Program-made: the position numbers and the translations under genes
Part shown: positions 918-24,104 of the stretch, in pieces
How positions within the stretch are numbered: position 1 is the first letter of the stretch
How the letters are laid out: each line of letters begins with the position of its first letter
The notes under the pieces: generated by a model
What the model saw: the letters and a program-made list of their open reading frames with translations, nothing else
Told to the model about the DNA's origin: nothing
Database searches by the model: none
IMG/VR virus record: IMGVR_UViG_3300017720_000003
Span: 1-64,000 of that record
Reading direction: 5' to 3' (one strand)
DNA length: 64,000 bases
From: a virus

Positions 918-928
918 AACCAAAATAA

Positions 929-2554
929 ATGGAGTATAATAAATACTATTGGCTTAATGAAGATAGCCGCAAATTTTTATCAAGAGGATATATAACAGAA
1001 GAACCAGAACAAAGAATAAAAGACATAGCAAATACAGCTGAGAAATATCTACACATGCCTGGGTTTGCTGAGAAGTTTGAAAAATACATGTCTAAAGGAT
1101 TTTATAGTCTATCAACACCTGTATGGATTAACTTTGGAAAACAAAAAGGATTACCTATTAGTTGTTATGGTTCTAACATAGATGACAATTTAGATAGCAT
1201 ACTTAATGCAGGTCGTGAAATAGGAATGATGTCTAAGTATGGTGGAGGTACAAGTTGTTATCTTGGGAATATAAGACCTAGAGGATCTGTCATATCTACC
1301 GGTGGTTTGGCTGATGGTCCTGTACACTATGCTAGAATATATGATACTGTAGTTGATGTATGTAAACAATCAGAAGCAAGAAGAGGTGCTTGTGCAGCTT
1401 ATCTACCAATTGAGCATGCAGACATAGAAGAATTTTTAGATATTGGTACTGAAGGAAACCTAATACAAAATTTGCAGTATGGTGTTACTGTTAGTACTAA
1501 TTGGTTAGAACAAATGCGTGGGGGAGATAAAATCAAACGTAAAATTTGGGCTAAAGTAATTCAAAGAAGAAGTGAATTTGGGTATCCTTATATAATGTTT
1601 ACTGATAACTCAAATAACAATAGCCCTTACAAAGAGCTAGGAATGAAAATCAATGCATCAAACTTATGTTCAGAAATACAATTACCTACTGATACTTATA
1701 ACTCTTTTGTTTGTTGTTTAGGATCTATAAATTTATTACACTGGGATGAAATTATTAAAACAGATGCTATAGAAACATATGTGTTCTTTTTAAATGCTGT
1801 TATGGATGAGTTCATCAAAAAGGCTGAGGTCAAAGCTGGCCTTAAAAGGGCTTATAACTTTGCTAGCAAACATAGAGCTATTGGTTTAGGAGTATTGGGA
1901 TATCATAGTTTATTTCAATCAAAGCTGATAGAGTTTGAGTCACTAGCAGCTAAACAACTAAACAATCATATTTTTAAACATTTAAAAGAAATATCAGATG
2001 AAGCATCAAGATGGTTATATGAACACAGAGGATATAGATCCTTACGTGAAGGTTATGCAAACACAACTCTTATGGCTATTGCTCCTACTAAATCTAGTTC
2101 ATTTATCCATGGTGCTGTGTCTATGGGTATTGAGCCAATAAAATCTAATTATTTTATTAAGGATCTTGCTAAGTCCAAAACAATATACAAGAATCCATTT
2201 TTAGAAGAAGAGTTAGAAAAGTATGGATTAAACACTAAGAAGACTTGGGCTAGTATACTTAAGAAAGATGGGTCTGTACAACACTTAGACTTCCCTACTA
2301 AAACTGTATTTAAGTCATTTGTAGAAATAACGCCTAAAGAATTAGTTCTACAAGCTGCCCAAAGACAACAGTATATTGATCAATCTCAATCTTTAAATCT
2401 TATGATACATCCATCAGTATCAGCTAAGGATATTAATGCGTTGTATTTATATGCACATGATGAAGGAGTCAAGACTTTATATTATCAATTTAGTCAAAGT
2501 AGTGCTCAAGATTTTGCTCGTAATATATTAGAATGTTCTAGTTGTGAAGGTTAA
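929..2554 (+). CDS. nrdA: Class I ribonucleotide reductase catalytic subunit, compact form without ATP-cone
   Basis: This is the catalytic alpha subunit that reduces ribonucleotides together with the adjacent NrdB. Visible catalytic residues are C79 (PISCYGS) and its redox partner C262 or C263 (FVCCLGS), the N245-C247-E249 active site (NLCSE), the Y518-Y519 radical-transfer pair (LYYQF) and the C-terminal CxxC at 536-539 that takes electrons from thioredoxin/glutaredoxin. At 541 residues it is much shorter than the usual 700-760. Only 78 residues precede the first active-site Cys (224 in E. coli), so the N-terminal ATP-cone that carries allosteric activity control is absent and the N-terminal helical region is trimmed. 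The spacing between the two redox cysteines is also shortened (about 184 versus 237 residues). All catalytic residues are kept, so it should be functional. The lipoprotein gene overlaps its end. Confidence 0.93.
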   Translation: MEYNKYYWLNEDSRKFLSRGYITEEPEQRIKDIANTAEKYLHMPGFAEKFEKYMSKGFYSLSTPVWINFGKQKGLPISCYGSNIDDNLDSILNAGREIGMMSKYGGGTSCYLGNIRPRGSVISTGGLADGPVHYARIYDTVVDVCKQSEARRGACAAYLPIEHADIEEFLDIGTEGNLIQNLQYGVTVSTNWLEQMRGGDKIKRKIWAKVIQRRSEFGYPYIMFTDNSNNNSPYKELGMKINASNLCSEIQLPTDTYNSFVCCLGSINLLHWDEIIKTDAIETYVFFLNAVMDEFIKKAEVKAGLKRAYNFASKHRAIGLGVLGYHSLFQSKLIEFESLAAKQLNNHIFKHLKEISDEASRWLYEHRGYRSLREGYANTTLMAIAPTKSSSFIHGAVSMGIEPIKSNYFIKDLAKSKTIYKNPFLEEELEKYGLNTKKTWASILKKDGSVQHLDFPTKTVFKSFVEITPKELVLQAAQRQQYIDQSQSLNLMIHPSVSAKDINALYLYAHDEGVKTLYYQFSQSSAQDFARNILECSSCEG

Positions 2555-2729
2555 GCTGTTATTGCTCTTGGTTTGCCTAGGCTGTAAATCGGAGTACAAC
2601 CCAGATACGGATCCTGAAGTCTTAGACTGGTACATTGATAATAATGATACTATTATCTATACTAAGCAAGACTCAATACAAGATGCATATGATAGAGCTA
2701 TTTACATTCGTTCTTTGACTGATGAATAA
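2544..2729 (+). CDS. Small lipoprotein overlapping the nrdA end
   Basis: A 61-residue product starting at a GTG that overlaps the last 11 bases of nrdA in another frame. Residues 2-13 form a short basic-hydrophobic signal (KVKLLLLLVCLG) followed by Cys14, a plausible lipoprotein attachment site, although position -3 is Cys rather than Leu. The mature part begins CKSEYN. Lys at +2 followed by an acidic residue resembles the lipoprotein surface-export signal known from some Bacteroidota. The mature protein is only about 48 residues and strongly acidic. It could be an outer spanin, a superinfection-exclusion lipoprotein, or neither. No inner-spanin partner lies next to it on the same strand, although a one-TM coiled-coil protein is encoded at 3223-3513 on the opposite strand. 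The translational overlap with nrdA supports real translation. Confidence 0.6.
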   Translation: MKVKLLLLLVCLGCKSEYNPDTDPEVLDWYIDNNDTIIYTKQDSIQDAYDRAIYIRSLTDE

Positions 2730-2835
2730 AATGTATAGAATCACATGAGTTACAAAAGAAAAAGGGGCCATCTTCAATGGTCCCTTCATAGTATGTCATG
2801 GGTTTACCACAACTACATGTTTGTGAAGAACTAAT
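2698..2835 (-). CDS. Zinc-ribbon reading frame without a standard start (possible frameshift extension)
   Basis: On the - strand, about 46 codons are open after the thioredoxin-like gene, in its +1 frame. The frame encodes a four-Cys ribbon: C-S-C-G-K-P, about 17 residues, then C-N-S-C-D, a pattern expected of a small zinc ribbon. It ends at a TAG at 2698-2700. No ATG, GTG or TTG precedes the first Cys pair; the only Met lies inside the ribbon, and an in-frame TAA lies upstream within the thioredoxin gene. The options are initiation at ATT (2833-2835), a +1 shift at the thioredoxin stop (TAT TAG T) giving a fused product, or a decayed gene. It also overlaps a terminator-like hairpin and the 3' end of the + strand lipoprotein gene. 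The cysteine pattern is seen directly; expression is inference. Confidence 0.35.
   Translation of the reverse strand: MSSSQTCSCGKPMTYYEGTIEDGPFFFCNSCDSIHFIHQSKNECK
2764..2784 (-). terminator. Hairpin with T-tract at the convergent junction
   Basis: An 8-bp stem (GGGACCAT/ATGGCCCC read on the - strand, one G-T pair) with a 5-base loop, followed on the - strand by TTTTTCTTTT. This is a good intrinsic terminator for the leftward envelope cassette. The + strand side lacks a T-run, so it would stop the nrd transcript less well. The hairpin lies inside the zinc-ribbon frame described at 2698-2835. Confidence 0.7.
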
Positions 2836-3220
2836 AAGTATTAGCTTTAGTTACTGCTTCCTGTAGTTCAGAAAGATCTATTGGGCATACTAGATCAAGA
2901 CCCGCTCTATAGTCTTCATATTGTATACCTTCTGCAAAGATTATTATAGTAGGTGCCATTCTAACTTTATAACTCTTTTTTGCTTTAGGTGCTTCTTTAA
3001 TATCACACTTATAATATTTAACTCCTGTAAGTTTATCCCATTCTTTAAATTCATTATCTTTATTAAAGTCAGCATAAAATTCTACTATTACAACAGCATA
3101 TGATTCCCCATAAGAATTTGTTCCACTAATTTTAGTATCAAAATTATCATCCGTTATCCATTCCTGTGCATGCATAGTATTGCAAGTAATGAATAATAAA
3201 ATTAACATTAAATTTTTCAT
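2831..3220 (-). CDS. Exported thioredoxin-fold protein lacking the CxxC active site
   Basis: A 129-residue protein with an N-terminal signal peptide (hydrophobic core at residues 3-13, probable cleavage after MHAQ near residue 19). The rest fits a thioredoxin fold: strand VVIVEFYADF, a strand carrying YYKCDI, then YKVRMAPTIIIF with the conserved cis-proline, and a C-terminal helix. The position of the WCGPC motif is FNKDN, so the catalytic cysteines are missing and disulfide exchange is not expected. The only cysteines after the signal peptide are isolated ones (YYKCDI and LVCPID). It is probably periplasmic and may bind or scaffold a protein rather than reduce it. It is the last standard gene of the leftward cassette, two bases after the TM coiled-coil gene, and is followed by a terminator. 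It is unlikely to be the RNR reductant, being exported and lacking CxxC. Confidence 0.75.
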   Translation of the reverse strand: MKNLMLILLFITCNTMHAQEWITDDNFDTKISGTNSYGESYAVVIVEFYADFNKDNEFKEWDKLTGVKYYKCDIKEAPKAKKSYKVRMAPTIIIFAEGIQYEDYRAGLDLVCPIDLSELQEAVTKANTY

Positions 3221-3222
3221 GT

Positions 3223-3513
3223 CTATCTTTGACTTAGTTCGTATAAACGCTCTTCCATCTTAGCTAAGGTTTGTTTGATTTCCTCAACATCTTCTTGTGT
3301 GGTCATTATAGTTTCTCTTATTAGTTCATCTTTTAGATCATATTCTACTCTTTCAATTGGGGGCTCAGGCCTCTCCATAGCTAATGCTATATCCGCCTTA
3401 AGTGTAAACCACATAGTTGACAGAGAAACTACAAATCCTACTATCATACCAATTGTTTTTAAATCTAAAGTTACTTTAGTTTGTTCCCCTATCTGAGGTG
3501 CTTGTTGTGCCAT
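3223..3513 (-). CDS. One-TM protein with C-terminal coiled coil (phage membrane protein, function unknown)
   Basis: A 96-residue protein with a short polar N-terminus (residues 1-20), one transmembrane helix (about residues 21-39, IGMIVGFVVSLSTMWFTL), a Pro-rich linker with PEPPIERVEYDLKDE, and a C-terminal charged heptad region (about residues 62-95) likely to form a coiled coil. I recognise this layout from Bacteroidota phages, where it is usually left as hypothetical. It resembles an inner-membrane spanin or a holin-associated protein in topology, but no lysis role is shown here: no endolysin gene is adjacent. It lies between the outer-membrane barrel gene (6 bases upstream) and the exported thioredoxin-like gene (2 bases downstream), so all three are probably co-transcribed and act at the host envelope. 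Confidence 0.7.
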   Translation of the reverse strand: MAQQAPQIGEQTKVTLDLKTIGMIVGFVVSLSTMWFTLKADIALAMERPEPPIERVEYDLKDELIRETIMTTQEDVEEIKQTLAKMEERLYELSQR

Positions 3514-3519
3514 TATTTA

Positions 3520-4779
3520 TTATTTAAATGAAAAATTTAATCCAATGCTACTTTGATATAGTTCACTATCCCAAAATTTGCCATATTCTCCTTCTATAAA
3601 GACTCCAAAGTGTCTACTTAATTTCCATCCTAAGTTAATTCCCACATTGTAATCATCCCATTGTTCATGTTCAGAATCTTGTCTTAGTCCACCTTTACCC
3701 CAGTTATTTCTATTTAAATAACTAAAGTCTACATCTCCAGAGATGTATTTATGATTAGGTAGTATGTAGTTAGCATAAGCATGCAACCAAAACTTACTTT
3801 TATAGTGGTAAAAATCAAAACCAATTATAGGTGCTATCTCTCCAAATCCACTTAAAAGATCCCATTGTTCGTTATTGTATCTATTTATTAAATCTCTAAA
3901 AACTGTATTTCTAAAATCAATATCAGAATAAGCTACTATATTTCCATCAGCATCTTTCCAAATCCAATCAGTAGTTTCTTCCCCTGTAGCCGCATCAGTA
4001 TATGTAGTGTAGTGATCAGTATAACCATATTCAAATCCTAAAGAATACCAAGGGTTTGATGGAAACTCAATAGGATTACCATTCTCATCTAAAAAAGGAT
4101 TACCATCTTGGTCAAAAAACTGTTCAGTTTCATTAAGCCATATCTCAATTGGATTATAACCATAAGCACGTTCATGTGTACGGTAGATTGCACCGGCTGA
4201 AATACTAAACTTTTTACCTAGTGGTAGTCTTAGTCTGGCTTCAGCTGACTTGTAGTTTAAGTTAATGCTTCCTACTTCTCTTGATTCAGCTTTAACTATA
4301 TGATACTTACCAGTATGCTTAATAAATATTCTATGGTTATTAAATTCTTCACCACGTAATCTTTCTTTTTCAAAATGCAACTGATACTCTAATCCTGTTA
4401 GAGCTGAAGATGGGGCTGTGAATGCTAATTGTTGTTCAGTTCCGTCATACCAATTTCTTGGCTTTCTTTCATAGTTAAATCTAGCTAGTTTCCTTATTCC
4501 AAATCCTATTCTATAATCAAAGTCAAAGTATTCTGTTACATCTATTACACGGGGAATAGCATAAAGATCACCATCCGCTGGTCGTTCTACAAAAAAGTCT
4601 TGTCTGCTTGTCTGGTAAGAATTGCGTGCATCTCCTGCTGCATATATAGTTCCATACTGTAAAAAGTCTTCGTACAATGCTTTGAAGAATTTACCTTTTT
4701 GTTTTACTTCTTGTGAGTGAGAAGTATTAGGTAAACAAAGAACCACAATAAAAACCAACAGACTTAAATATTTTTTCAT
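3520..4779 (-). CDS. Predicted outer-membrane beta-barrel protein encoded by the phage
   Basis: A 419-residue protein with a clear signal peptide (MKKYLSLLVFIVVLCL, probable cleavage after HSQ near residue 23). The mature part is rich in alternating aromatic/polar strands and Gly/Asn/Asp turns, for example KFWLHAYANYI, FGVFIEGEYGKFW and SIGLNFSF at the extreme C-terminus, which resembles the terminal strand recognised by the BAM machinery. Turn segments include DQDGNPFLDENGNP. These features fit an outer-membrane barrel of perhaps 12-16 strands. Outer-membrane proteins are uncommon in phages; possible roles are receptor masking, superinfection exclusion or a lysis aid. It heads a three-gene leftward cassette and has its own promoter-like element and about 95 bases of spacer from the giant cargo gene upstream. 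No specific family was recognised. Confidence 0.7.
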   Translation of the reverse strand: MKKYLSLLVFIVVLCLPNTSHSQEVKQKGKFFKALYEDFLQYGTIYAAGDARNSYQTSRQDFFVERPADGDLYAIPRVIDVTEYFDFDYRIGFGIRKLARFNYERKPRNWYDGTEQQLAFTAPSSALTGLEYQLHFEKERLRGEEFNNHRIFIKHTGKYHIVKAESREVGSINLNYKSAEARLRLPLGKKFSISAGAIYRTHERAYGYNPIEIWLNETEQFFDQDGNPFLDENGNPIEFPSNPWYSLGFEYGYTDHYTTYTDAATGEETTDWIWKDADGNIVAYSDIDFRNTVFRDLINRYNNEQWDLLSGFGEIAPIIGFDFYHYKSKFWLHAYANYILPNHKYISGDVDFSYLNRNNWGKGGLRQDSEHEQWDDYNVGINLGWKLSRHFGVFIEGEYGKFWDSELYQSSIGLNFSFK

Positions 4780-10550: not shown

Positions 10551-13500
10551 TTATAAATTACATTTTTTAATTTGATCTATGAAACTTTCTTCATTTTCAT
10601 AGATTCCGTTATTATATTCATCAATGAAGTCTTCCAAAGATAGGATATTATTTTCTCTCAAAGATGCCATTGCTTCTTTATTTCCTTGTATGTTAGCATC
10701 CCAAAAATTAGTAAGTGTTGGAAATTGTTCTTCTAGTTCCATTTCAAAATCTAAAGTCATCTGGCTTTCCACCTCATCTATTTCAGGTAATGATGTATCA
10801 ACATTATCAATAACATTTGCTTCTAATTCACTTTGATCTTGTGCATCTTGATTTAACCCAAGTTGCTCTAACAGTAATGCTGTGTCAGCAACATTAGTCA
10901 TAGTTGCTTCAGGATCAAGTTGTACTTCAATACTATTTTCATTTGCCTCAATATTTACATTATCAGCTTTTAATATTTCCTCTTGTATTGCTACGGCATC
11001 ATCTATTGCTACTGTAAAATCTGATGGATCTTCTTGTGTTGTTCCATTTTTAGAATCTACAAAAGCTCTTACTTCTTTATACGTAGGTCTAGGTCCAAAC
11101 ATAAAACCAATATGTGTTTGTTGATTAGAGCCAAACGGATCTATTTCCTTATATGTTTTAGATTCTGAATCTAACTTATATGTTTTGATTACACCTTGTA
11201 CATCACCAATTCTAACATAGTTTGGTGTAACATCTCTACTTAAACCAACTGCCATCCAGTTTACTGTTACTTCATTGTCTTTTACTTGAACGCCCTTTTG
11301 TAAACTTCCCGTTGCTGAAGACCTTTTAAAAGTCCAAAGCTTTGATCCATTAATGTTAGACTCAAGAAAACCTTCTGTAAATTCTTTTGTTAACTCTTCT
11401 TGAGATAACCCAAATACAGATTCAAAAGAAACATCTCCTCTAACCGCTTGTTCAACAGTATTAATATGAGATAAAAATTTGTTTATTGTAAATGGAGCAA
11501 TTGCTTCTAATAAACTACCATATCTTAATTGTAACCCATCTTTAACCATGATATAGTTAATTATTGTCTGAGCTTGATTTTTAGTATCAAGAGAGCCATA
11601 TAGTTGTGCAAAGCTATTTTGTAAATCCACCTTTTGTGGAGCAGATAAGTTTCTAAATGTATTAGCCATTGCTATATTAAGACCTGAATTATTACCTACA
11701 TCGGATGCAGATTCTGGTATAACAAAATTATCAATAAAGAAATTTGATTCATTTTTTGATTCTAATACTTCTTTTATTTCATTTATAACATCAACAATAG
11801 ATCTATCTGAATTAGGATATATTAAATCATTACTTAATACTTTTTCATTAAGCGTCCCGTTTTGTAGAAGATTATACTGATAACCTTTTATATTAAGATA
11901 AGATAAAAGATCCAATGCAATATTTTGCACGTCTTCTGTTTTTAATGTTGTAGCCCTTGTATCTATATTGTCAACTACATTATCTAATATATCTTGAAAA
12001 ACAGGTGAACTACTTAAAAATGTTACCGGTAATAATTCATCAGTAAGCTGTTTAAACAATCTTAAATATGTACTATTCCATGTATTACTACTATAAATTT
12101 TAGTTAAATCTAATGGGGCATCTTGAGAAAGCAATTCCTGTATTTTTTCTTTCTTATCTAATACGGTTGCAATATTTTTACCTAGACCTTTAGTAAGACT
12201 TGTGGGTGCACTCATTTTATTTGTAAAAGTTTCAAGATCCATAAACTCTTTAAACTTTGACAGTATACTTACAGTCTCTTGATCACTTACCCCCTCTGGT
12301 TCATTAATGACATTTAGTAATAATTCATCGTTAACTTTTAATGTTGATTTAGATCCATCTTCAACTAATTCCTTTATTTTGTTTTCTACTAATTTTTCAA
12401 TGCCCGGATCAAACTTATCTTTTTTATTTAATGCTTGAGAATACAAATCTTGTATAACGGGATTGTTTATTAATAATATAGATGTTCTAATAGGTACACT
12501 TAATGAAGTCATCATTGATACCAAACCTAATGCATGTCTATTTAAACCCAGCTTAGAAAACAAACGCTCTTTAGCATTATCTGTAGCCATAGTAATAAGA
12601 GAGGATATTGTATCTTGCTTTCTTTGATTACCCTCATTCTTTTTTTCTGTAGTATATTTAAATGAGTCGTAAGTTACACCATCTATGCTAATTGGGCTTT
12701 TTAAATCAATATCATATTCAGTGAGCAAACTAAGATATAAATTAGGTAATACAGCAGCTCCAATAGAAGCTCCTTTATTTGCTTTGAAAGCAAGTATCTT
12801 ACCAACCAAATCATCTACATCATTATTTTCCTCTAACATTCTATTCTCAAATAACTTTGATTCTTCAGCTAATAATGATAATGTAGTTTCAAGTATATCT
12901 AATGTAGCAGGTGAATAAGAAATAGGATTTTCTCCAGATGCTACACTATCATTTCCAAGTAATGCATATTTATAATCTAAAATTTTGTTATTTAATGGAG
13001 CAGCATATGGTTCACCAAATTTAGCAACATACTCACCGTATTGTGCTTTGGTAATAGGTAAACCAAGCATTTGTAATGCCTTTACACCTGCTTCTTTTAA
13101 TCCTGCATCTGTAACAATATTTTGTTTTGTTAGAAATTGATAGTATGCTTTTTCTTCAGATTCTGAAAGGCTATTTTCAATTTTAGCTGCATCTAAATTT
13201 TCATCATAAGTTAAATAAGCTTCAGAGTATATTGTTCCAGACTTACTTACATTAGTATTTACATATCTAATATAATCTGAATAATTTTCTTCAACTGTAT
13301 TTTTATTACCATACTCAAAAAATTCTCCATCTTTTACATAGAAGTCTTTAAACTGTGCAAAGACTTTATCAATATCAAAATCTGCACCAGATACCTCAAT
13401 TAATTCTCTAGCAAACATTGCTGATGAACCAAAATACACAGGCATAAAATCAACCCATTTAATATTCATTGCTGAGTGATTATCTTGAGATGGTATTCTT

Positions 13501-16500
13501 ACACCAAACATTTTTGATATTACTTCAGGCATAGTTGCTGAAGGTGTATTTTCAATTAAATCCATTACAGATTTATGATGTGATGGCATCATCATCTCAG
13601 TATACCTTTGACCTGTAGGTTCACCATTAGCATCATATTCCATTACACCATGTCTTAATCTATCTAATACAACAACGCCTTCTGGACCTATATTCTCTTG
13701 TGTTAAAGAATCAATATTAAGTAAATCATTTTCATTTCCTTGCCAAGCAGCTCTTCTTATAATTTCAGATCTAATTGGTATTCCATCTTTAATTTCAAAT
13801 ACTCTCCTATAAACTTTATTTCCAAAGTCTGATACTAATGTAAGACCTAAGCCAGGTGTTCTTTCTGAAAATACCCCTTTACTAAAGTAGCTTAAAAATA
13901 ATTGCTCAAACTTTCTTATTGTGATTTGATTATTTAAGTTATAATTTGGTACTCCATTAGTCATAGAAAAGAATTCAAGTATCTGGCTACTAGATTGTGA
14001 GGCTTTAAGACCGCTTAATGCAAACTCTAAAAATGCAGCAAGCTTAGGTGTAACTTTACCAGAAGCTTGAGATATACTTAATTCATCCATTGCACCATCA
14101 AAACTAAATATTAAATTTCTTTTATCTTTAAATCTTAAACTAACTCTTTCTGATACAGCTTTATTATATTCTGTTCTAATTTCACCAACAGTCATATTTA
14201 ATGCTGGAACAAATTGATTATCATTTTGTTCAGATGTTAATATCTGTTTTATTTGTGTAGGATCAACTTGCTCTAATTTATTAGATGGATTTAATTGTTG
14301 TAGACCCATAAATCTAGCATCTAATGTAGTATAACCCTTGGTAAATGGATTACCATCGGCTAGTTCTTCAAGTGAATTAACACGTTGTTTTTTCATTTTA
14401 ACTGCACTTAATGGAGCAGCAATTGCAATTGTTTCTTTTTCTTTTTCAATAGCTTCTAACTTTACTCTTAGATTATGAAGTGATTCCAGTCCTGGTTTTG
14501 GCAACCACATCTTTATATCTCCATCCCATATAGATGTATATTCTGGTGTTAAAGTAAAAGCAGACATTTTAAGAAATGTACTTCCATCACCATAAACAAA
14601 CTTTTTGGAATTTAACAATGCTTGCATCTTAGCATAACCTTCAGGTGTAGCTTCATTTCCAAATACTGAATCAGAAGTTATTGTTTGACCTGTCTCAATT
14701 CTATTAATCAATTCAGCTTGAGCTGCTGTTAATTTACCAAAACCAAACCACATATATCTAAATGCTTTTGTTGTAATATACATTTGAGCATCAGCAATAT
14801 CAATTCCACTGTCTTCCGGTTCTTCTAATGTAACTAAACTTATATCATCTACAGGATGGATAACACCATGAGATGGAGCCGTTATAGCTGAGTATGCACT
14901 ATAGTATGCACCGTTTTGCATTTTAGCTCTTTTAATCTGATCTACTGAATCTTTTAAAGAAACAGCTTGATCACCTAAAAGAATCTCATTTATAGAGTAT
15001 GAATTTATAGCATCATTAAAAAATATCTGTTTAAGATTATGTCTGTAGTTATCATTAAGATTTAATAATGAAGCAGATTGTACAAGAGCAGTTCTACTTA
15101 CACCAGCTGCTATAATAGGACCTGATTTTACTTGATTAGATATTTGGTCTTCTATTTTTAATTCATCTATTAACTGTTCAAATACTTGAAAACGGCTTTC
15201 TAAGCTATCAACTACACCTTCTCTTAATGCTGTCATTCCAGATACCTCATTGGTAACCTCACCAGTTTGTTGTGCAACTGTCACTGTTCCTGCTAAAGCA
15301 TCATCTAGTGTGATAACATTACCTGCATTACCTGCTTGAATTGCTGCGTTAATAAGAAAAGTCTGTTGTTCTTCAGACATTAATGTCTTAGTGTTAAAAA
15401 ATGTAAGTGCTCTTCCGTCAGTATATCCTAATATATCTTCTTGAGTTTTTGTTGCATTATTTGCTTCTCTGTTTATTCTAGCAAACTCAGTTCTAATTTT
15501 ATCAATATATATATCTACAGCCTCTTCAGTTAAAACAGCTTCTTCATTAACCATTTCCACAGTCTTAATTACCGGAAGATTAATCATATCTCCTGTATTA
15601 GACGCTTCCATTACTCTTATAAGCACCGGTGCTAATCCAGTAGTAATTTTATTACCCTCATCATCTAAACTTTCTACATTAGATACTTTATAACTTTTAC
15701 TATTTAATAAGCCTGCATAATTATTTATTAAGTTCAGAGCAAACTCTTGTGGGGTAAAATCACCATATGTTGAAGTTTGCTTGACCCCTTGTAAAGAATC
15801 ATTTAGTTCTTCTTCAGTTGATAACAGGTCACCTATTTTATTTCCTGCTACTCTTATTATTTGCAATCTTGATTCTAATGATAGCTGATTAAAAGCTGCA
15901 TTATTTAATAAAAAGTTATTTGCCAAATAAGGATCTGATTTTAATAACTCTTCTAAACTATCTGCATTATTTAATTGTGCTACCTTTTTTAAATGATATG
16001 TTGGTAGTTGGTGTGCATAAACTAAATCACCATTAGGATTTTTAAATACAGATGCTCCAATTGTTTCATCAAATGGTGCATTACCAACTGCCATTTTCTT
16101 TAATCTAGAATCCATACCAGATTGATCAACTGCAAAGATATCATTGTTGTCTTGAATTAACTGACTCATTAAAGCTATAGAACTTTCTTTATAAGGCTTG
16201 CCGTCTAAATCATGAGTTAATGTTGGCGTTTCATTTTTATTTAAATCTAAAAAAACACGTTGATCAGAGTTTAAATTAGATCTGTTATATAACATGCTAT
16301 ACTGAAGATAAAGTGGACTAATTTTAATACCAGAAAGATTAAATAATTGCTCAGAGTATTTTTTAGAATCTTTCTTAAGTTTTGTACTACTAATACCTTT
16401 GCTGTTTGGTATTATTTCACTTTGAATTTCAGCAAGTAAAGTTATCAGTTCTGTTTTCAAATTAGGATTAGACAAAAGTTGTTTTCTTTTACTAATAAAT

Positions 16501-19500
16501 CCTTGACTCCATCTATCTAATTGAGAATTAGTATCATCTCTTTCTGACGCAGAATATACTATTGTGTTACCTGCATTGTCCCTTTCATTAAATAAGTAGT
16601 CAACTCTAAAGTTTTCAAAACCTTTTAGTATTGACTGAAATAATAAAGGAGAATTAACTTCTAACGGAATGCTATTGTCACTTAACAATTGTTGTTCAGT
16701 TATTCCTACATCATTTAGGATCCTACGCACAACAGCTGCTGTTTCTGAATTATCTTGTCCAAAGAAATACATGCTTTGTAATATCTGTTTAGGATCAGTT
16801 AAGTTTTTAACAGCTTTAAGTAAACCATTATAAGCTTCTACAAAATCAACAGCTATTATTATTGGCTCACCGTTTGTTAATTCAGTATTTCCAAAATAAT
16901 CAGTTGCTTCTACAGAAGTTGTTGCTATATAAGCTCTAAGCTGACTAGATAAAGATCTAAATCCACCAATCATTGATGCATCTTTATCATACTCAGATGT
17001 AGTTCTCAAACCAGTAGAGTCTTCAAACTCTTCTACTTGAAATTCTTCTTCATTGGCCTTATCACTTATTTGATTAATATACTTTACACTTTGATTTCTT
17101 ATCTCATCACTATAATTATCAAAAGCTGATTGTATTTCAATTAATTTTTGTTTCTGTAAATCAGTTTTATTTTCATTAATAGGATTATCTATACTATATA
17201 AAAATTCAAAATCATCTAGTATAGAATCCATTTGTTCTTTAGGATTATAAGATTCATTTAATTTAGATATACGTTGTAAAAACATAGCTGATATATTTCT
17301 TACTAAAGGATCTGCTATATCACTATCTAAATAAATAAACCCTAAAGTATCATCTTTACTTATTGAGTCATGTGGTATTAATGCATTAGCCTCTATAGTA
17401 GTTCCTACATCCAATGCTGTAGTAAATTCATTATTAGCTATTTGTGCACCTTTGAATTTACCTGAGTCAATATTTTCAAATAAAGTACGTAATTCATTTT
17501 TTGAATATGAATTAAAAACACCTTGTATCCATTCTATAATTCTAGTAAATAAAGATTTAACACTTGCATCAGTGTTTGTATTCTTAGGATTTATTTTGAA
17601 CTTTTCAAATTCATCTGCTAAATATTCTTCATAGTATTCATTCTCTAGTTGTTTCCTAGTCATGTTACTATATGTATCTGCAGAGTTTTTAAATTTTTCA
17701 AGTTCTTTCTCAAAGCTTTTTCCTTCAGCTCTAAGTTTAGCTCTTACTTCTTTTCTTGCTATACTTCTATATTTAGTTATCTCCTCATTACTAAGTAACA
17801 TTCTAAATACCCCATGAAAAGCCTCATGATATTTGTATGGAGATGTTGCACCAGTATAAATAGTTCCTGATACTTTTTGTCCACCAGCTACATGATTTAA
17901 TCCTAATACAAACGCACCAACACGTACACCACCAGCTTTTAAATTATTTCCTAATGTTGTTATATCAGCTATATTAATAAAACTAGGTAAGTTACTTGCA
18001 GCCCAGTCAGTAAAAATATCTATATCTTCTACATCTGATAAACTTAAATCAGAAGAAGACATAATTTTATTAGCTTCTTTTTCAATTGCTTTTCTTTGAG
18101 CTAATAATTTTTGATACTCTTCATTTGTTCTAAGAGTCTTACCTCTTTCTTTAGGTTGTACACCTTCTAACAGCTGTGCCTTAAGAGTTTCAAGTTTTTG
18201 TTTTATATCTTCAAGCTTACTAACTTCTTGTGTTGGTTGTGAACCTTCGCCACCTTTTTTAGAAACCATTACATTAATAGTAGCAGCTCTCATATTATAA
18301 ACTTCTACTTCTCTTGGTGTTAGATTATCCACACCCTCTCTAACAATTTTATTTACTATATGATTAATGTATTCAGAAGGTAATGTAATAAAATCTTTAG
18401 CTGCAAATTCAGCAAATGCTGGATCACTTAAATCTAATAAACTAAACTCCGCTTCTTCAGAAGTAAAATTAGATTCTTCTACTACTTCAATAATATCTTC
18501 TTTTATGTTACCCTTATCAACTTCAGCTTGAATGGCTGAGGAATCACCTATTGCTCTAGCTGAATTATTTAATACTACTTCTGGTCTCACATTAGTAGTA
18601 GTAGCATCTATAAGATCAGCAGCAGATACCTGTGTTGGAAATGATTGTCTAAAGTTTTTATTTGATATTTTATTTCCTGATTCTGCTATATCTGCGTTAT
18701 TATTAAAATCATTAATTAATGCTTGTATATAACCATTGATAGATGAATCTGATACAAAACTTTTTGCATTTCCAGCAGGTATATCTATAGTAATAGTATC
18801 TCCTATTTGTTTACCTATATCTGTATTATATAATTGTAGTTGTAACTTACCCCATGGAGTAACTTGTAAAGAAATATTATAACCTTCTTTAGCTGATATA
18901 AATACAGACCCTCTTATATTCTCTTCATTAAATTGAGTGTTATATGCTAAGTCTTTAGCTTTACCATCTTTATCTAAGTTTTCCTTTTTAGTTTTTTGTG
19001 CACGGTTAACAAGATCTGCTGCTAAATTATCTCTTTGAGATTTATTAAATGTACGGGCTTTTAAATTAACAGGTCTGTAAGATCCATCAGGTAATTGTAC
19101 TATAGCTATATATCTATCAGTACCATTCTTAATATCATCCCACATTAAATCTTTTTCAAGTCTAGATTTTATTTTATTAGATAGCTTAACTCCCTCACTA
19201 CCTTCTAGTGAAGTAATAAATTCTACTGATCTAGCACCTCCCTTTTTCCTTTTTAAATCAAAAATAAAATAGTTACCATTTTCATCAGCGTGTTCATAGC
19301 GTAAATCTTTTAAAGATCTTGTTGAACTATTGTCATAAGACATTCCTCCTTTTTGAGCAACAAATCCTAATCCAAATGGTAAATCATTTAATGATACAAT
19401 ATTCATATCTACATTACTCTTCATTACACCATCAGCATATGAAACCAATAATGCATTCAGAGCAAAATTATTTCTTGCTAACTCTAAAGCTTGTTTTGGA

Positions 19501-22500
19501 TCTAATTTATTTCTTAACTCAGGACTAACAAATAAAGTATTTAACGCTTGTTCTCTGGATATGTTAGATAAAGATTTTATTGTTTTACCCTGAGCATCTT
19601 GCATAGTTACATTACCGTTAGGAATATATGCAAATACACCATTTTCATTATCTGTTAAAGGAATATTGTTTTCTCTTAATATTCTATTGATTTTTGTTTT
19701 TGTCTCTCCATCAGGAATAGCAAGCCCTATACTATACTTAGATTGTTTTATATCAACATAAGGATTTTCTTCTTTACCTGATACAATATATTTAGATGAT
19801 TCGTTGTTAACTATTTTATTTGATGTAATAACAAGTTCAAGATTATTAATTTCTTCTTGTGTTAAATTATCTAATATAATATTTAACCTATCATCTGCAT
19901 AACTATAGTCTCTTTGTCCATCTACAGTATCTGCATGAGGATACAATTTATTTATATCGGTTATATTAACTCTAGATACATTTGTTGGTAATAAGTCAAA
20001 TTTAAATTCTTGTATGGAATAAGAATTTTTAAACTGCCCTGCTTGTAATGTAATAGGTTTGCCTTCAAAGTTATTAGGAAGTAAACGTAAGTTTCCACCC
20101 TGTATAAATTTAGGAGTGCTGATTACTCTATACTCTTTACCATCTTTATCATAAACCAATTGACCTTGAAATAACATTTGACCATCAAAAGGAAATGGTG
20201 TAGTATCTGGTGCACGTTTATCTAATTCTCTCATAGCTGCAATAGCAGATCCAGAATCACTAAAAGCATTAAGTGTAACGCCTATTTGTGATAATAGTTC
20301 AGAAGATACATTATTTCCTTTCTTATCAATTAATTTATATAAAGCCTCAGCTTGACCTTGCTGATTTATTGTTATTATTTTAAGTACATCTGTTGTTGCA
20401 CCTAATTGAAAAATACTTGGTTTAGGTGGATTAGCAGGATCAATTTCATCATCTTCATTACCTACTGCTGGAGTAACTGTACTTGGATCTGACTCAATTG
20501 GTTCAGTATAATACATTTCATTTAATGGTATACCCGCTGCTTGAAGTATTTCTTTTACTAAATCATTTTCTAATACCTCTCTGCTTTTTAACCAATTTTC
20601 AAAACCTTTTTCAGATTTAATATCTTCATCAGTTAATTCTCCAAATACAGGATTACCTTGAGCATCTAATACTGGAAGTTTACCTGATATCCATAATTTC
20701 TTTAATGCATTAAATGTATTTTGCCAGCTCAACCCTTCTTCGTTTCTCCACTCCTCAAAGCTTTTAACTTTTTCACCAAGAACAGTTTGAGTACCAGCAT
20801 ACTTTCTGTACTGTCTATCTAATAAAGCTCTTAATAATGGAGTATTATTAGATTCAGGTAAAATAACATCTATATCAGCTTCTTCTAAGATTTCTTCTTG
20901 ATTACTTTTTGTTTCTTGTACCTCAATGTCTTTACTCTTTTGTTCAGTTGTTTCTCCTGAGTCATCAGTTTTTTCTGACATCTTTCTATATGTATCAAGC
21001 AATCTTTGAATTTGATCATACTTTACTTTATCTAATTGAGGATCTATATCACCTTGTTCATCATAAAAGTTTTTTAGCTCATTTACATTTCCTGTAAGTA
21101 AGAATTTCTTTACTTGTTCAGGATCACCAACATAACCAGCTTCAAATAATTTATTCATTAAAGTATTAGCTTCTTTTATATTGATATACTTTTCTATTTG
21201 TTGCTTATGTATTTTACTAAGACTTTTATATATATTTTTATTAACCTCTATTTGTCTTTCAACAATTTCATTAAGTCTTTCTGGATTGTTTAAATACTCA
21301 ATTGCTTTATCATAAACTTTAGCTCTACCTTTTAATGCATGATAATCAACCATTTGTTTAAGAGCCTCTTGAATTTTGGATCTATCTACAAAAGAGTTAG
21401 TTGATTGCGCCATGAATTGAACATAGTCCTGAAATGCAGTAGTAAGTCTGTTTATTTTTCTTCTATCAAAAGAGCCATCTTTGGTTAAATTTTCTGGAGC
21501 AGTTAATATTTTTTCAACAGCTTGAAGTTTTTTAATTTTATCTGTTTTCTGTTCAATAACTTTTTTACCGTCTTTGCTATCTTTATCTTGAACAGCAATA
21601 TCTTGTAATAGCAATCCAATTTCATTATTAATGGAGTCTATGTCTAATAATACTGTAATATCATTAGCTGCCATTTTCTCAAATAATGGATCATTACTTA
21701 AGTTAGTATAAATACTATCAGCTCTTTCTATTGCACGTTTAAATCCGTCTTCAGTAAACATATAAAGATATGTAGCATGTTCAAATGCTTTTTCTTTAAT
21801 AGCTTCTAAAATATATTGTCTGCTACCTTTATCATATTGTGATCTATCATAAGGATTTTTAAATTTATTTCTGTTGTTTTCAAAAGTAGTTTCATACTTA
21901 TCTATGTTATTAACTAAATCTTGAAGTCTTTGTCTTGCTTTACCACTTTTAATATCTTTTTTTTGATTAGGAAATGCTTGAGCTAATTCTTCATCACTCA
22001 TTTTCATAAAATCTGTAAGCTGAGATCTAAAATACTGAGATGTTCCATTTTGAAAAATAGTATAAAGTTGTTGAAACTTTGCAAAATCTTTCTCATCTGT
22101 AAAACCAAATCTATCTAGAGTAAAAGCATTTTTTTTCATTGCTGCAGCAACTTGCTTTTGAACTAAAAAGTTTAATTTAGTTGGATCAAATAAACCAGAA
22201 GGATCATTAATTGTACTATTCCATGCTTCGTTATGTACTTTAACTAAATCTTTAACATATTTTCTTTTTTCCTCTTGGAATTCTTTAAATGCTTTCGGGT
22301 CACTAATTCTATTATATAAAGCAGGCATCCCTTGAAACACTAGTTTTTGAGGTCCTTGTACAATACCACCCATTAAAAATCCAGATAAAAAAGTCTCTAC
22401 ACCTTGTCCACTAAACTGAGAACCCATTCCAGAAAGAATCATATCATTCTGTAATTCTACACCACCTGCTAATGGATCTTCCATTACAGCAGTATAATAA

Positions 22501-24104
22501 CCTTTAGTACCTACAGCAATAGCCTCTTGCCCAATTTCTTGTAAACCTTCTGCTACGTTTGCAGCAAAGTATCTTGCAGTTGCTGCTATTGCCATTCCAG
22601 TATTACCCTTAATACCACCGGCTTTTACTTTAGTCCACCAACCTTTAATACCAGATCCTGCATCTTCAAATACATCTTTAATTTTACCGGTAGCAGCATC
22701 TTTTACACCTTTCCCTTTAAATAATCTTCCGTTTAGACCTTTTTTATATGTATCATTAAACACCCTACCCAATGATCTATTAAATCCACCCATTGCATTC
22801 CCTAATACAATTTGGTTACTTAAAAAGATTAATGGTGCATTAGTCATTGTAGTATAAAAAGCACCTTCACCTGCTTGGTTTTGTATAAGTGCCATTTGTT
22901 CAGGTGTTACATTACCTGTTTTTTTCTTCTGTATAGCCACACCTTCTCTTACAAGTTCATTATAGACCATAGCACCTTCAAGCTTACTTTCAGCTAATGC
23001 TAAATTTACTGATCTAAAATCTCTATAAAAACCACCAAATCCAGCTTTAGCTTTTGCCAAATTGTTTGCATTTTGTGTAGCATTTTTAGCAGTCTTGAAA
23101 TTTTTAAGTGCAGAATAAGTTTGTGGAGTTAATATATTACCTACTACCCTTCCTCCAGATTTTGCAGCTTGCCAAAAAGCTTTAGCTGCATCATAATTTT
23201 TTAATTGATTCATTAAAGCTCTGGTAGAAGCTTGCATGTTTTTTATATTAAAAAAGTTTTTTGTACCCTTTGCAAGTCTTGCAACATTCATTGCTGTTCT
23301 TGCTCCAGCCACAGGAGCTGCTGCACCGCCAGTAACATATGTTGCACCGGCAAGTATTAATTCTTCTAAGGCAATAGATCCAATTATACCAAATGTATAA
23401 CCACTATTTAAAAGCAAGTTATTTGTAAAACCTAGTGCTCCTCCTCTTGATGAGTTACCAATAGCCATAGCATCTTCAAACTCCATTCCTGAATCAATAT
23501 CTGGTGCACTAAGATATGCATCATCATCAAACAAATCTCCCAGACTTCTATATACACTTGAAAATCCAGAACCAACTAAACTACCAAACTCACCTCTCAT
23601 TCTAGACATATCATCCCAAATTGAAGAGTTTGCGTTATAATATGATTCCATATCTGCATAAGGAGTAAAACCTAACTGAGCAAAATCAGGGTGTTCATAA
23701 TACCTTAAAAAATTACTTTGTCTAATGTTAGCAAAACGTGGATCAACAATATCTGCCGCAGGTCCAGCTGACTCAGCTTTTAAAATACTCTTTACTGTAT
23801 TGTATGTATCTTGAGGAGGGTTCTGTTGTTTAACAGGATCAAATAAACCTGTAGCTAAAGAAGGTCTAGCTACACCTAAACTTGCCATTGCAGGTATACC
23901 ATACTTGTCTATATCTGCTTTATATGCACCTACATTTGCAATTGCACCAGGATCTGTAGCTAATACTTCAGCTAACTGAGTTTCTGGTCCTTCAAACATA
24001 TCTTCAACTGGTATAAAATTAAATTGTCCAGTTGGAACTACGCTTGTTTCTCTTTGATTGCTAGTTACAGCAGTCTGTAAAGGTGTGTTCCCTTGCTCTT
24101 TCAT
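10551..24104 (-). CDS. Giant virion RNA polymerase cargo protein with intact zincin domain (4517 aa)
   Basis: By far the largest gene here. The C-terminal half carries D3575-F-D-I-D3579, the metal-binding motif of the single-chain virion RNA polymerases of crAss-like phages (shown for Cellulophaga phage phi14:2 gp66), related to the DxDGD motif of multisubunit and QDE-1-type enzymes. It probably transcribes early phage genes after injection. A zincin motif H2093-E-A-F-H2097 followed by EEYLADEFE and a Trp-containing helix marks an intact metallopeptidase-like domain upstream of the polymerase core. Residues about 225-290 are hydrophobic and Ala/Gly-rich, which suits membrane passage. The N-terminal 1200 residues are otherwise helical and unassigned. 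The phi14:2 polymerase is about half this size, so several virion proteins seem joined in one chain. It sits 8 bases after one cargo gene and 3 bases before the next. Confidence 0.85.
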   Translation of the reverse strand: MKEQGNTPLQTAVTSNQRETSVVPTGQFNFIPVEDMFEGPETQLAEVLATDPGAIANVGAYKADIDKYGIPAMASLGVARPSLATGLFDPVKQQNPPQDTYNTVKSILKAESAGPAADIVDPRFANIRQSNFLRYYEHPDFAQLGFTPYADMESYYNANSSIWDDMSRMRGEFGSLVGSGFSSVYRSLGDLFDDDAYLSAPDIDSGMEFEDAMAIGNSSRGGALGFTNNLLLNSGYTFGIIGSIALEELILAGATYVTGGAAAPVAGARTAMNVARLAKGTKNFFNIKNMQASTRALMNQLKNYDAAKAFWQAAKSGGRVVGNILTPQTYSALKNFKTAKNATQNANNLAKAKAGFGGFYRDFRSVNLALAESKLEGAMVYNELVREGVAIQKKKTGNVTPEQMALIQNQAGEGAFYTTMTNAPLIFLSNQIVLGNAMGGFNRSLGRVFNDTYKKGLNGRLFKGKGVKDAATGKIKDVFEDAGSGIKGWWTKVKAGGIKGNTGMAIAATARYFAANVAEGLQEIGQEAIAVGTKGYYTAVMEDPLAGGVELQNDMILSGMGSQFSGQGVETFLSGFLMGGIVQGPQKLVFQGMPALYNRISDPKAFKEFQEEKRKYVKDLVKVHNEAWNSTINDPSGLFDPTKLNFLVQKQVAAAMKKNAFTLDRFGFTDEKDFAKFQQLYTIFQNGTSQYFRSQLTDFMKMSDEELAQAFPNQKKDIKSGKARQRLQDLVNNIDKYETTFENNRNKFKNPYDRSQYDKGSRQYILEAIKEKAFEHATYLYMFTEDGFKRAIERADSIYTNLSNDPLFEKMAANDITVLLDIDSINNEIGLLLQDIAVQDKDSKDGKKVIEQKTDKIKKLQAVEKILTAPENLTKDGSFDRRKINRLTTAFQDYVQFMAQSTNSFVDRSKIQEALKQMVDYHALKGRAKVYDKAIEYLNNPERLNEIVERQIEVNKNIYKSLSKIHKQQIEKYINIKEANTLMNKLFEAGYVGDPEQVKKFLLTGNVNELKNFYDEQGDIDPQLDKVKYDQIQRLLDTYRKMSEKTDDSGETTEQKSKDIEVQETKSNQEEILEEADIDVILPESNNTPLLRALLDRQYRKYAGTQTVLGEKVKSFEEWRNEEGLSWQNTFNALKKLWISGKLPVLDAQGNPVFGELTDEDIKSEKGFENWLKSREVLENDLVKEILQAAGIPLNEMYYTEPIESDPSTVTPAVGNEDDEIDPANPPKPSIFQLGATTDVLKIITINQQGQAEALYKLIDKKGNNVSSELLSQIGVTLNAFSDSGSAIAAMRELDKRAPDTTPFPFDGQMLFQGQLVYDKDGKEYRVISTPKFIQGGNLRLLPNNFEGKPITLQAGQFKNSYSIQEFKFDLLPTNVSRVNITDINKLYPHADTVDGQRDYSYADDRLNIILDNLTQEEINNLELVITSNKIVNNESSKYIVSGKEENPYVDIKQSKYSIGLAIPDGETKTKINRILRENNIPLTDNENGVFAYIPNGNVTMQDAQGKTIKSLSNISREQALNTLFVSPELRNKLDPKQALELARNNFALNALLVSYADGVMKSNVDMNIVSLNDLPFGLGFVAQKGGMSYDNSSTRSLKDLRYEHADENGNYFIFDLKRKKGGARSVEFITSLEGSEGVKLSNKIKSRLEKDLMWDDIKNGTDRYIAIVQLPDGSYRPVNLKARTFNKSQRDNLAADLVNRAQKTKKENLDKDGKAKDLAYNTQFNEENIRGSVFISAKEGYNISLQVTPWGKLQLQLYNTDIGKQIGDTITIDIPAGNAKSFVSDSSINGYIQALINDFNNNADIAESGNKISNKNFRQSFPTQVSAADLIDATTTNVRPEVVLNNSARAIGDSSAIQAEVDKGNIKEDIIEVVEESNFTSEEAEFSLLDLSDPAFAEFAAKDFITLPSEYINHIVNKIVREGVDNLTPREVEVYNMRAATINVMVSKKGGEGSQPTQEVSKLEDIKQKLETLKAQLLEGVQPKERGKTLRTNEEYQKLLAQRKAIEKEANKIMSSSDLSLSDVEDIDIFTDWAASNLPSFINIADITTLGNNLKAGGVRVGAFVLGLNHVAGGQKVSGTIYTGATSPYKYHEAFHGVFRMLLSNEEITKYRSIARKEVRAKLRAEGKSFEKELEKFKNSADTYSNMTRKQLENEYYEEYLADEFEKFKINPKNTNTDASVKSLFTRIIEWIQGVFNSYSKNELRTLFENIDSGKFKGAQIANNEFTTALDVGTTIEANALIPHDSISKDDTLGFIYLDSDIADPLVRNISAMFLQRISKLNESYNPKEQMDSILDDFEFLYSIDNPINENKTDLQKQKLIEIQSAFDNYSDEIRNQSVKYINQISDKANEEEFQVEEFEDSTGLRTTSEYDKDASMIGGFRSLSSQLRAYIATTSVEATDYFGNTELTNGEPIIIAVDFVEAYNGLLKAVKNLTDPKQILQSMYFFGQDNSETAAVVRRILNDVGITEQQLLSDNSIPLEVNSPLLFQSILKGFENFRVDYLFNERDNAGNTIVYSASERDDTNSQLDRWSQGFISKRKQLLSNPNLKTELITLLAEIQSEIIPNSKGISSTKLKKDSKKYSEQLFNLSGIKISPLYLQYSMLYNRSNLNSDQRVFLDLNKNETPTLTHDLDGKPYKESSIALMSQLIQDNNDIFAVDQSGMDSRLKKMAVGNAPFDETIGASVFKNPNGDLVYAHQLPTYHLKKVAQLNNADSLEELLKSDPYLANNFLLNNAAFNQLSLESRLQIIRVAGNKIGDLLSTEEELNDSLQGVKQTSTYGDFTPQEFALNLINNYAGLLNSKSYKVSNVESLDDEGNKITTGLAPVLIRVMEASNTGDMINLPVIKTVEMVNEEAVLTEEAVDIYIDKIRTEFARINREANNATKTQEDILGYTDGRALTFFNTKTLMSEEQQTFLINAAIQAGNAGNVITLDDALAGTVTVAQQTGEVTNEVSGMTALREGVVDSLESRFQVFEQLIDELKIEDQISNQVKSGPIIAAGVSRTALVQSASLLNLNDNYRHNLKQIFFNDAINSYSINEILLGDQAVSLKDSVDQIKRAKMQNGAYYSAYSAITAPSHGVIHPVDDISLVTLEEPEDSGIDIADAQMYITTKAFRYMWFGFGKLTAAQAELINRIETGQTITSDSVFGNEATPEGYAKMQALLNSKKFVYGDGSTFLKMSAFTLTPEYTSIWDGDIKMWLPKPGLESLHNLRVKLEAIEKEKETIAIAAPLSAVKMKKQRVNSLEELADGNPFTKGYTTLDARFMGLQQLNPSNKLEQVDPTQIKQILTSEQNDNQFVPALNMTVGEIRTEYNKAVSERVSLRFKDKRNLIFSFDGAMDELSISQASGKVTPKLAAFLEFALSGLKASQSSSQILEFFSMTNGVPNYNLNNQITIRKFEQLFLSYFSKGVFSERTPGLGLTLVSDFGNKVYRRVFEIKDGIPIRSEIIRRAAWQGNENDLLNIDSLTQENIGPEGVVVLDRLRHGVMEYDANGEPTGQRYTEMMMPSHHKSVMDLIENTPSATMPEVISKMFGVRIPSQDNHSAMNIKWVDFMPVYFGSSAMFARELIEVSGADFDIDKVFAQFKDFYVKDGEFFEYGNKNTVEENYSDYIRYVNTNVSKSGTIYSEAYLTYDENLDAAKIENSLSESEEKAYYQFLTKQNIVTDAGLKEAGVKALQMLGLPITKAQYGEYVAKFGEPYAAPLNNKILDYKYALLGNDSVASGENPISYSPATLDILETTLSLLAEESKLFENRMLEENNDVDDLVGKILAFKANKGASIGAAVLPNLYLSLLTEYDIDLKSPISIDGVTYDSFKYTTEKKNEGNQRKQDTISSLITMATDNAKERLFSKLGLNRHALGLVSMMTSLSVPIRTSILLINNPVIQDLYSQALNKKDKFDPGIEKLVENKIKELVEDGSKSTLKVNDELLLNVINEPEGVSDQETVSILSKFKEFMDLETFTNKMSAPTSLTKGLGKNIATVLDKKEKIQELLSQDAPLDLTKIYSSNTWNSTYLRLFKQLTDELLPVTFLSSSPVFQDILDNVVDNIDTRATTLKTEDVQNIALDLLSYLNIKGYQYNLLQNGTLNEKVLSNDLIYPNSDRSIVDVINEIKEVLESKNESNFFIDNFVIPESASDVGNNSGLNIAMANTFRNLSAPQKVDLQNSFAQLYGSLDTKNQAQTIINYIMVKDGLQLRYGSLLEAIAPFTINKFLSHINTVEQAVRGDVSFESVFGLSQEELTKEFTEGFLESNINGSKLWTFKRSSATGSLQKGVQVKDNEVTVNWMAVGLSRDVTPNYVRIGDVQGVIKTYKLDSESKTYKEIDPFGSNQQTHIGFMFGPRPTYKEVRAFVDSKNGTTQEDPSDFTVAIDDAVAIQEEILKADNVNIEANENSIEVQLDPEATMTNVADTALLLEQLGLNQDAQDQSELEANVIDNVDTSLPEIDEVESQMTLDFEMELEEQFPTLTNFWDANIQGNKEAMASLRENNILSLEDFIDEYNNGIYENEESFIDQIKKCNL

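What the first reader, a model, noticed from the sequence alone, without database searches (positions are those of the whole stretch)
10551..24104. RNA polymerase and intact zincin domain joined in one 4517-residue virion protein
Seen: D3575-F-D-I-D3579 polymerase motif and H2093-E-A-F-H2097 zincin motif in one uninterrupted frame. Known: the crAss-like phi14:2 virion polymerase (gp66) is a separate chain of about half this length. Inference: the metallopeptidase may cut the chain after packaging or injection, releasing the polymerase, or may thread or clear host proteins. A protease built into an injected polymerase would be an unusual activation mechanism.
Basis: partly seen in the sequence, partly recalled or inferred. 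Interest (0 to 1): 0.75.

Follow-up and report, generated by a model that had tools for sequence, protein, structure and literature searches.

The report
Phage RNA polymerase fused to protease
A phage distantly related to the gut virus crAssphage makes one giant protein that joins the RNA polymerase its relatives carry inside the virus particle to a conserved zinc-protease domain; most relatives keep these as two proteins, so the join is a real, conserved gene fusion, but nothing shows that the protease cuts the polymerase free.

Summary
ORF 10551-24104 is one open 4517-aa frame with a single HEAFH (2093) and a single DFDID (3575). The C-terminal part is a Crassvirales two-barrel virion RNA polymerase: its model (pLDDT 83) matches one solved structure at E<=0.001, phi14:2 gp66 (6VR4, E 4.5e-24). 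The zincin is conserved and under strong purifying selection, but its fold was not proved (model core low, no PDB match).

The fusion is not unusual. It sits in one ORF in 71/75 RNAP-anchored and 76/78 zincin-anchored contigs tested, and in named genomes cr118_1 (one 4946-aa chain, same spacing) and cr108_1 (across a group I intron in the active site). PhiCrAss001, p-crAssphage and others keep zincin and RNAP as separate proteins. N4-type RNAPs were reported in 2017 to be always fused to zincins, with self-processing already proposed and N4 packaged uncut. Since the zincin persists unfused, cutting to release RNAP is unlikely to be its general role.

Beyond the finding: in close relatives, unrelated domains are inserted in this chain beside an invariant 19-base DNA linker. 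That is the more novel lead.

New variant of a known kind.

The parts
10551..24104 (-). 4517-aa fused chain: zincin-bearing RNAP-associated protein (about residues 1-2215) joined to virion RNAP (about 2216-4517)
   Evidence: relatives
17460..24104 (-). N-terminal half (about residues 1-2215), counterpart of PhiCrAss001 gp47 / p-crAssphage gp45, ending in the zincin; the boundary is approximate
   Evidence: similarity outside the zincin is weak
17487..17969 (-). zincin domain (residues 2046-2206), the most conserved part of the N-terminal half; dN/dS 0.09-0.13
   Evidence: hhalign 98% (E 1e-13) to cr108_1/PhiCrAss001 zincins
17814..17828 (-). HEAFH (2093-2097), predicted Zn-binding/catalytic helix; H, E, H identical in all 73 aligned members (rows were chosen for HE[AG]FH)
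17607..17630 (-). EEYLADEF (2159-2166), predicted second helix with the third zinc ligand; E2159 and E2160 invariant in 44 non-redundant members
10551..17459 (-). C-terminal half (about 2216-4517), counterpart of phi14:2 gp66 / PhiCrAss001 gp50 two-barrel virion RNAP
11115..14672 (-). modelled RNAP core (residues 3145-4330)
   Evidence: pLDDT 82.8, pTM 0.82; 6vr4_A E 4.5e-24, prob 1.00
13368..13382 (-). DFDID (3575-3579), catalytic Mg-binding loop
15255..15278 (-). degenerate linker at residues 2943-2950 (VAQQTGEV); relatives L012, L013, L051 carry unrelated inserted domains here
18213..18236 (-). degenerate linker at residues 1957-1964 (PTQEVSKL), just before the zincin; insertion site in L012 and L014/L015
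4875..10547 (-). 1890-aa downstream protein, counterpart of phi14:2 gp65 / PhiCrAss001 gp49; PHROG exonuclease match at 416-613

Best explanation
[quoted passage not shown] The chain is most likely packaged, ejected partly unfolded ahead of or with the DNA, and refolds in the host to transcribe early genes (inferred from phi14:2 and PhiCrAss001). The zincin is most likely an active protease acting during or after entry on co-ejected cargo or on a host protein. Its job does not depend on being joined to RNAP, and cutting RNAP free is at most an extra consequence in fused clades. Shown by computation: open frame, RNAP fold and family, zincin motif conservation, fused and unfused states. Inferred: packaging, protease activity, target, timing.
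For: RNAP: single PDB fold match 6vr4 E 4.5e-24; homology to gp66. Zincin: H-E-H and EE invariant, dN/dS 0.09-0.13, at or below the RNAP core, profile match to zincins of PhiCrAss001 gp47 and cr108_1. Fusion conserved: 71/75 RNAP-anchored, 76/78 zincin-anchored including one with DHDGD, cr118_1 with spacing 1475 against 1482 here, cr108_1 across a group I intron. Unfused or rearranged: PhiCrAss001 gp47/gp50, Intestiviridae and Crevaviridae, phi14:2 zincin in gp65; the RNAP chain of Flavobacterium phage FPSV-S29 carries a HExxH near its C-terminus. Both subunits are virion proteins in PhiCrAss001.
Against: No protease activity, target or metal has been shown; the zincin model is low-confidence in its sheet and had no PDB fold match; no Pfam zincin family matches; the best PDB sequence match, a pro-pro endopeptidase, is weak (E 0.011); the profile match to alpha/delta crAss zincins is weak (68%). 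Packaging is untested for this phage. Persistence unfused does not exclude cis-cleavage in this clade.
Confidence: 0.6

Rival explanations
1. Release model: the zincin cuts its own chain, in the capsid or after ejection, freeing an active RNAP of about 2300 aa like gp66.
For: The zincin sits next to the approximate junction, so a cut there would restore the two-chain state of relatives. Self-processing by zincins was proposed for polyvalent proteins, and P1 DdrB is processed before packaging (PMC5512222).
Against: The zincin is kept where there is nothing to separate (PhiCrAss001 gp47, p-crAssphage gp45) and lies in gp65 in phi14:2; N4 virion RNAP with a zincin is packaged uncut; no cleavage motif was identified near the junction (only conservation inspected).
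Confidence: 0.22
2. Entry tool: the zincin clears or opens envelope proteins for the ejected chain and DNA; fusion only ensures co-delivery.
For: Cargo proteins must cross the envelope and are thought to be extruded partly unfolded (PMC10172136). A phage with a related large N-terminal-type protein and no RNAP motif in the proteins checked (Lbo-JY46) has HExxH motifs.
Against: No envelope-targeting or transmembrane feature was tested; the Lbo-JY46 zincins were identified by motif only.
Confidence: 0.13
3. The zincin is a structural or packaging domain with vestigial catalysis.
For: In N4 the zincin-containing region is needed for encapsidation (PMC5512222).
Against: Invariant H-E-H and EE and dN/dS about 0.1 argue for a kept active site.
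Confidence: 0.05

Closest known systems
phi14:2 gp66 virion RNAP (PDB 6VR4), Crassvirales
   Same: RNAP fold, DFDID loop, position between gp67-like and gp65-like proteins
   Different: gp66 is a separate 2180-aa chain without a zincin; in phi14:2 the zincin is in gp65
PhiCrAss001 gp47 + gp50; p-crAssphage gp45 ('putative RNAP associated protein fused to zincin protease') + gp44
   Same: same parts; zincin near the C-terminus of the RNAP-associated protein; gp47 also has HEAFH
   Different: two chains; in PhiCrAss001 encoded on opposite strands; p-crAssphage gp44 is annotated as RNAP fused to another RNAP subunit
cr118_1 gp14 (annotated 'exonuclease V', 4946 aa) and cr108_1 gp054+gp053
   Same: HEAFH/HESFH then the RNAP motif in one chain; spacing 1475 in cr118_1, 1482 here
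   Different: low identity; cr108_1 has a group I intron within the DxDxD codons
N4-type virion RNAP with MPTase (zincin) domain; polyvalent proteins (PMC5512222)
   Same: one giant virion chain with RNAP and zincin
   Different: the N4 polymerase is T7-like single-subunit, an unrelated fold, so the pairing arose separately
P23-45 gp96, RNAP fused to tape-measure protein (PMC10770324)
   Same: virion RNAP as part of a giant virion protein
   Different: the partner is a tape-measure protein; the searched text reports no protease domain

Membership tests
Crassvirales two-barrel virion RNAP (gp66 family) | catalytic DxDxD loop in homologous context | tested here: met
   DFDID 3575, aligned with gp66 and crAss RNAPs
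Crassvirales two-barrel virion RNAP (gp66 family) | overall fold like 6VR4 | tested here: met
   Foldseek E 4.5e-24, prob 1.00, TM 0.67 by query length
Crassvirales two-barrel virion RNAP (gp66 family) | beside a gp65/gp49-like protein in the transcription block of a crAss-like genome | tested here: met
   4875-10547 matches gp65 and p-crAssphage gp44 C-terminus; terminase matches Crassvirales terminases
Crassvirales two-barrel virion RNAP (gp66 family) | packaged in virions and transcribes early genes | not testable with these tools
   known for relatives only
Gluzincin metallopeptidase | HExxH plus downstream glutamate ligand, conserved | tested here: met
   invariant in 44 non-redundant sequences
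Gluzincin metallopeptidase | zincin fold | tested here: inconclusive
   both key helices predicted, sheet below pLDDT 50, no PDB fold match
Gluzincin metallopeptidase | catalytic activity with zinc | not testable with these tools
   none
Pfam MPTase-PolyVal (PF18818) | match to the family profile | tested here: not met
   no Pfam match for the full chain nor PF18818 for the zincin; one search is uninformative because its controls did not ring
N4-type virion RNAP | T7-like single-subunit polymerase | tested here: not met
   polymerase is the two-barrel type
Polyvalent protein | unrelated enzymatic domains in one delivered polypeptide | tested here: inconclusive
   RNAP and zincin in one chain; NADAR, DUF7831 and P-loop inserts only in relatives; delivery untested

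The most novel reading that the evidence does not exclude
The giant virion RNAP chain of these phages is a modular delivery vehicle: effector-type domains are exchanged between phages as cassettes by recombination at an invariant short DNA linker (CCAACACAACAAACTAGTG) inside the RNAP gene, ride into the host on the polymerase, and may be cut loose there by the built-in zincin. Exchange at the linker is well supported by sequence; delivery and cutting are untested.
Probability: 0.35. Interest if true: 0.78.

Novelty: new variant of a known kind. Interest (0 to 1): 0.5.

Why it matters
Two unrelated virion RNA polymerases (T7-like in N4, two-barrel here) are both joined to zincins, and crAss-like phages show joined, adjacent and moved states of the same parts. 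That makes the role of the zincin, a common but untested domain of injected phage proteins, open to direct test. The linker finding suggests how such giant chains gain and swap domains.

Tried and rejected
Frameshift, intron or assembly artefact in the window: rejected (98% identical relative with the same frame; no Rfam match in the window). Internal start giving a separate RNAP: no methionine conserved across the family near the junction. Zincin fold by structure search: no usable match. Pfam and PHROG naming of the chain: nothing. A comparison of zincin profiles was circular (window in both) and was replaced. Literature: no paper in the held library joins 'crAss-like' with 'zincin', and neither the linker peptide nor its DNA was found; subscription papers, including the 2018 crAss genome paper and the phi14:2 structure paper, were not available. 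Host from genome contigs: four MAG matches of mixed Gram-negative labels, probably binning, not interpreted.

Full report
Observation. On the minus strand 10551-24104 is one 4517-aa ORF. HEAFH occurs once at 2093 and DFDID once at 3575. A plain DxDxD is expected about 1.3 times by composition, HExxH 0.011 times, so the polymerase call needs homology. The window is part of a 77,450-base IMG/VR virus record.

What the halves are. tblastn of the C-terminal half finds Crassvirales RNAPs, including phi14:2 gp66; alignment shows the GSDFDID/GADFDID core and an invariant RIP motif. An AlphaFold2 model of residues 3145-4330 from 42 environmental sequences has mean pLDDT 82.8, and the only PDB match at E<=0.001 is 6VR4, the phi14:2 virion RNAP. 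The N-terminal half matches public phages only weakly, best at the zincin (cr108_1). The zincin profile matches the zincins of cr108_1 and PhiCrAss001 gp47 with 98.1% probability and those of alpha/delta crAss phages weakly. The fold itself was not shown: the model is poor in the sheet and found no PDB match.

Fused or not. With an RNAP alignment 80 IMG/VR loci were fetched. Of 75 with enough upstream DNA, 71 have HE[AG]FH and DFD[IVL]D in one ORF, three are split between frames, and one (L049) lacks HEAFH. Starting instead from the zincin, 75 of 78 informative loci (viral contigs and MAG contigs) have both in one ORF, and a further one has DHDGD. Many of these loci overlap between the two sets. 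The spacing is mostly 1461-1527 residues, with longer spacings where the chain has insertions. In the alignment of 73 chains the zincin is the best conserved part of the N-terminal half; rows were selected for HE[AG]FH, so the unselected counts above carry the motif argument. dN/dS of the zincin is 0.09-0.13 against 0.13-0.23 for the RNAP core.

In named genomes: cr118_1 gp14, annotated 'exonuclease V', is a 4946-aa chain with HEAFH 1734 and DFDID 3209, and gp66 aligns from residue 1871 on. cr108_1 has HESFH in gp054 and the RNAP running into gp053, with a group I intron at L001 22370-22688 splitting the DxDxD codons. PhiCrAss001 has HEAFH near the end of gp47 and the RNAP in gp50 on the opposite strand. 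p-crAssphage and other Intestiviridae and Crevaviridae have the HExxH near the end of the protein just upstream of RNAP. phi14:2 has it in gp65. FPSV-S29, a cultured Flavobacterium phage, has a 4419-aa 'structural protein' with a gp66-like RNAP (DYDID 3240) and a HExxH at 4197; the resemblance of that motif region to the phi14:2 gp65 zincin is by eye, not significant by search.

Mechanism. Packaging and ejection are inferred from PhiCrAss001 and phi14:2. Because the zincin survives whether or not it shares a chain with RNAP, its main role is more likely on other cargo or host proteins than on freeing RNAP. The same release idea was published for zincin-containing polyvalent proteins, including N4 virion RNAP, which is nevertheless packaged uncut (PMC5512222). 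A 2024 paper also notes fusions of virion RNAPs to large proteins in crAss-like and N4-related phages (PMC10770324). Cis-cleavage in this clade stays open.

Linker and cassettes. In relatives 86-91% identical to the window, unrelated 100-262-aa domains are inserted after window residues 1956 and 2949. At 2949 the inserts are flanked by a repeat encoding PTQQTS[E/G]V-like peptides; at 1956 the repeat is more degenerate. A scan for the exact DNA (21 bases) hit 30 viral contigs. A second scan allowing synonymous codons (except serine TCN) hit 34: 31 lie in large ORFs and all share the identical 19 bases CCAACACAACAAACTAGTG; the other three are in short ORFs with different DNA. Some of these contigs are near-duplicates, so the number of independent cases is smaller. 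Many of the ORFs are RNAP chains, including types distant from the window. The same upstream domain is joined to different downstream ones and vice versa. Named inserts are DUF7831 (1.6e-36), NADAR (5e-11) and a possible P-loop domain (2e-4); most have no Pfam match. Both sites in the window are empty and degenerate. The linker was not found in cultured phages beyond chance-level matches.

Verdict. Observation confirmed; interpretation partly supported; new variant of a known kind; the linker-flanked cassettes are the more novel lead.

Noticed in passing
L012, L013, L014, L051, L018, L034 and others; degenerate copies in the window at 15255-15278 and 18213-18236: An invariant 19-base linker (CCAACACAACAAACTAGTG, PTQQTS) joins swappable domains, including NADAR and DUF7831, inside giant RNAP chains.
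   Followed up: partly
L001 22370-22688 (NC_055878.1): A group I intron interrupts the codons of the RNAP catalytic DxDxD motif in cr108_1.
   Followed up: yes
NC_055872.1 16381-31221 (L142): cr118_1 gp14, annotated 'exonuclease V', is a 4946-aa zincin-RNAP chain.
   Followed up: yes
MK764449.1 33971-47230 (L141): Cultured Flavobacterium phage FPSV-S29 has a 4419-aa 'structural protein' with the RNAP and then a HExxH motif near its C-terminus; a possible test system.
   Followed up: partly
L049 / L026 (IMGVR_UViG_3300024221_000011): Everything upstream of the window-2942 linker, zincin included, is replaced by unrelated sequence and cassettes, while the RNAP part stays about 78-80% identical.
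   Followed up: partly
L117 ORF: One chain with HEAFH at 717 and a further HExxH motif (HEYAH, 2265) before the RNAP; about 1200 extra residues between.
   Followed up: no
window 61716-63335: The capsid protein's best match in the phage collection is the cyanophage Lbo-JY46 (29%), then Cellulophaga phi17:2, while the terminase matches Crassvirales (25%); host unknown.
   Followed up: partly
PP438436.1 62354-75260 (L127): Lbo-JY46 has a protein resembling the N-terminal part of the chain and a 2748-aa protein with two HExxH motifs; no DFDxD motif was seen in the seven large proteins checked.
   Followed up: partly
L179: RNAP motif reads DHDGD instead of DFDID in an otherwise similar fused chain.
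   Followed up: no
window 120-2554, + strand: Ribonucleotide reductase small and large subunit genes (PHROG matches).
   Followed up: no
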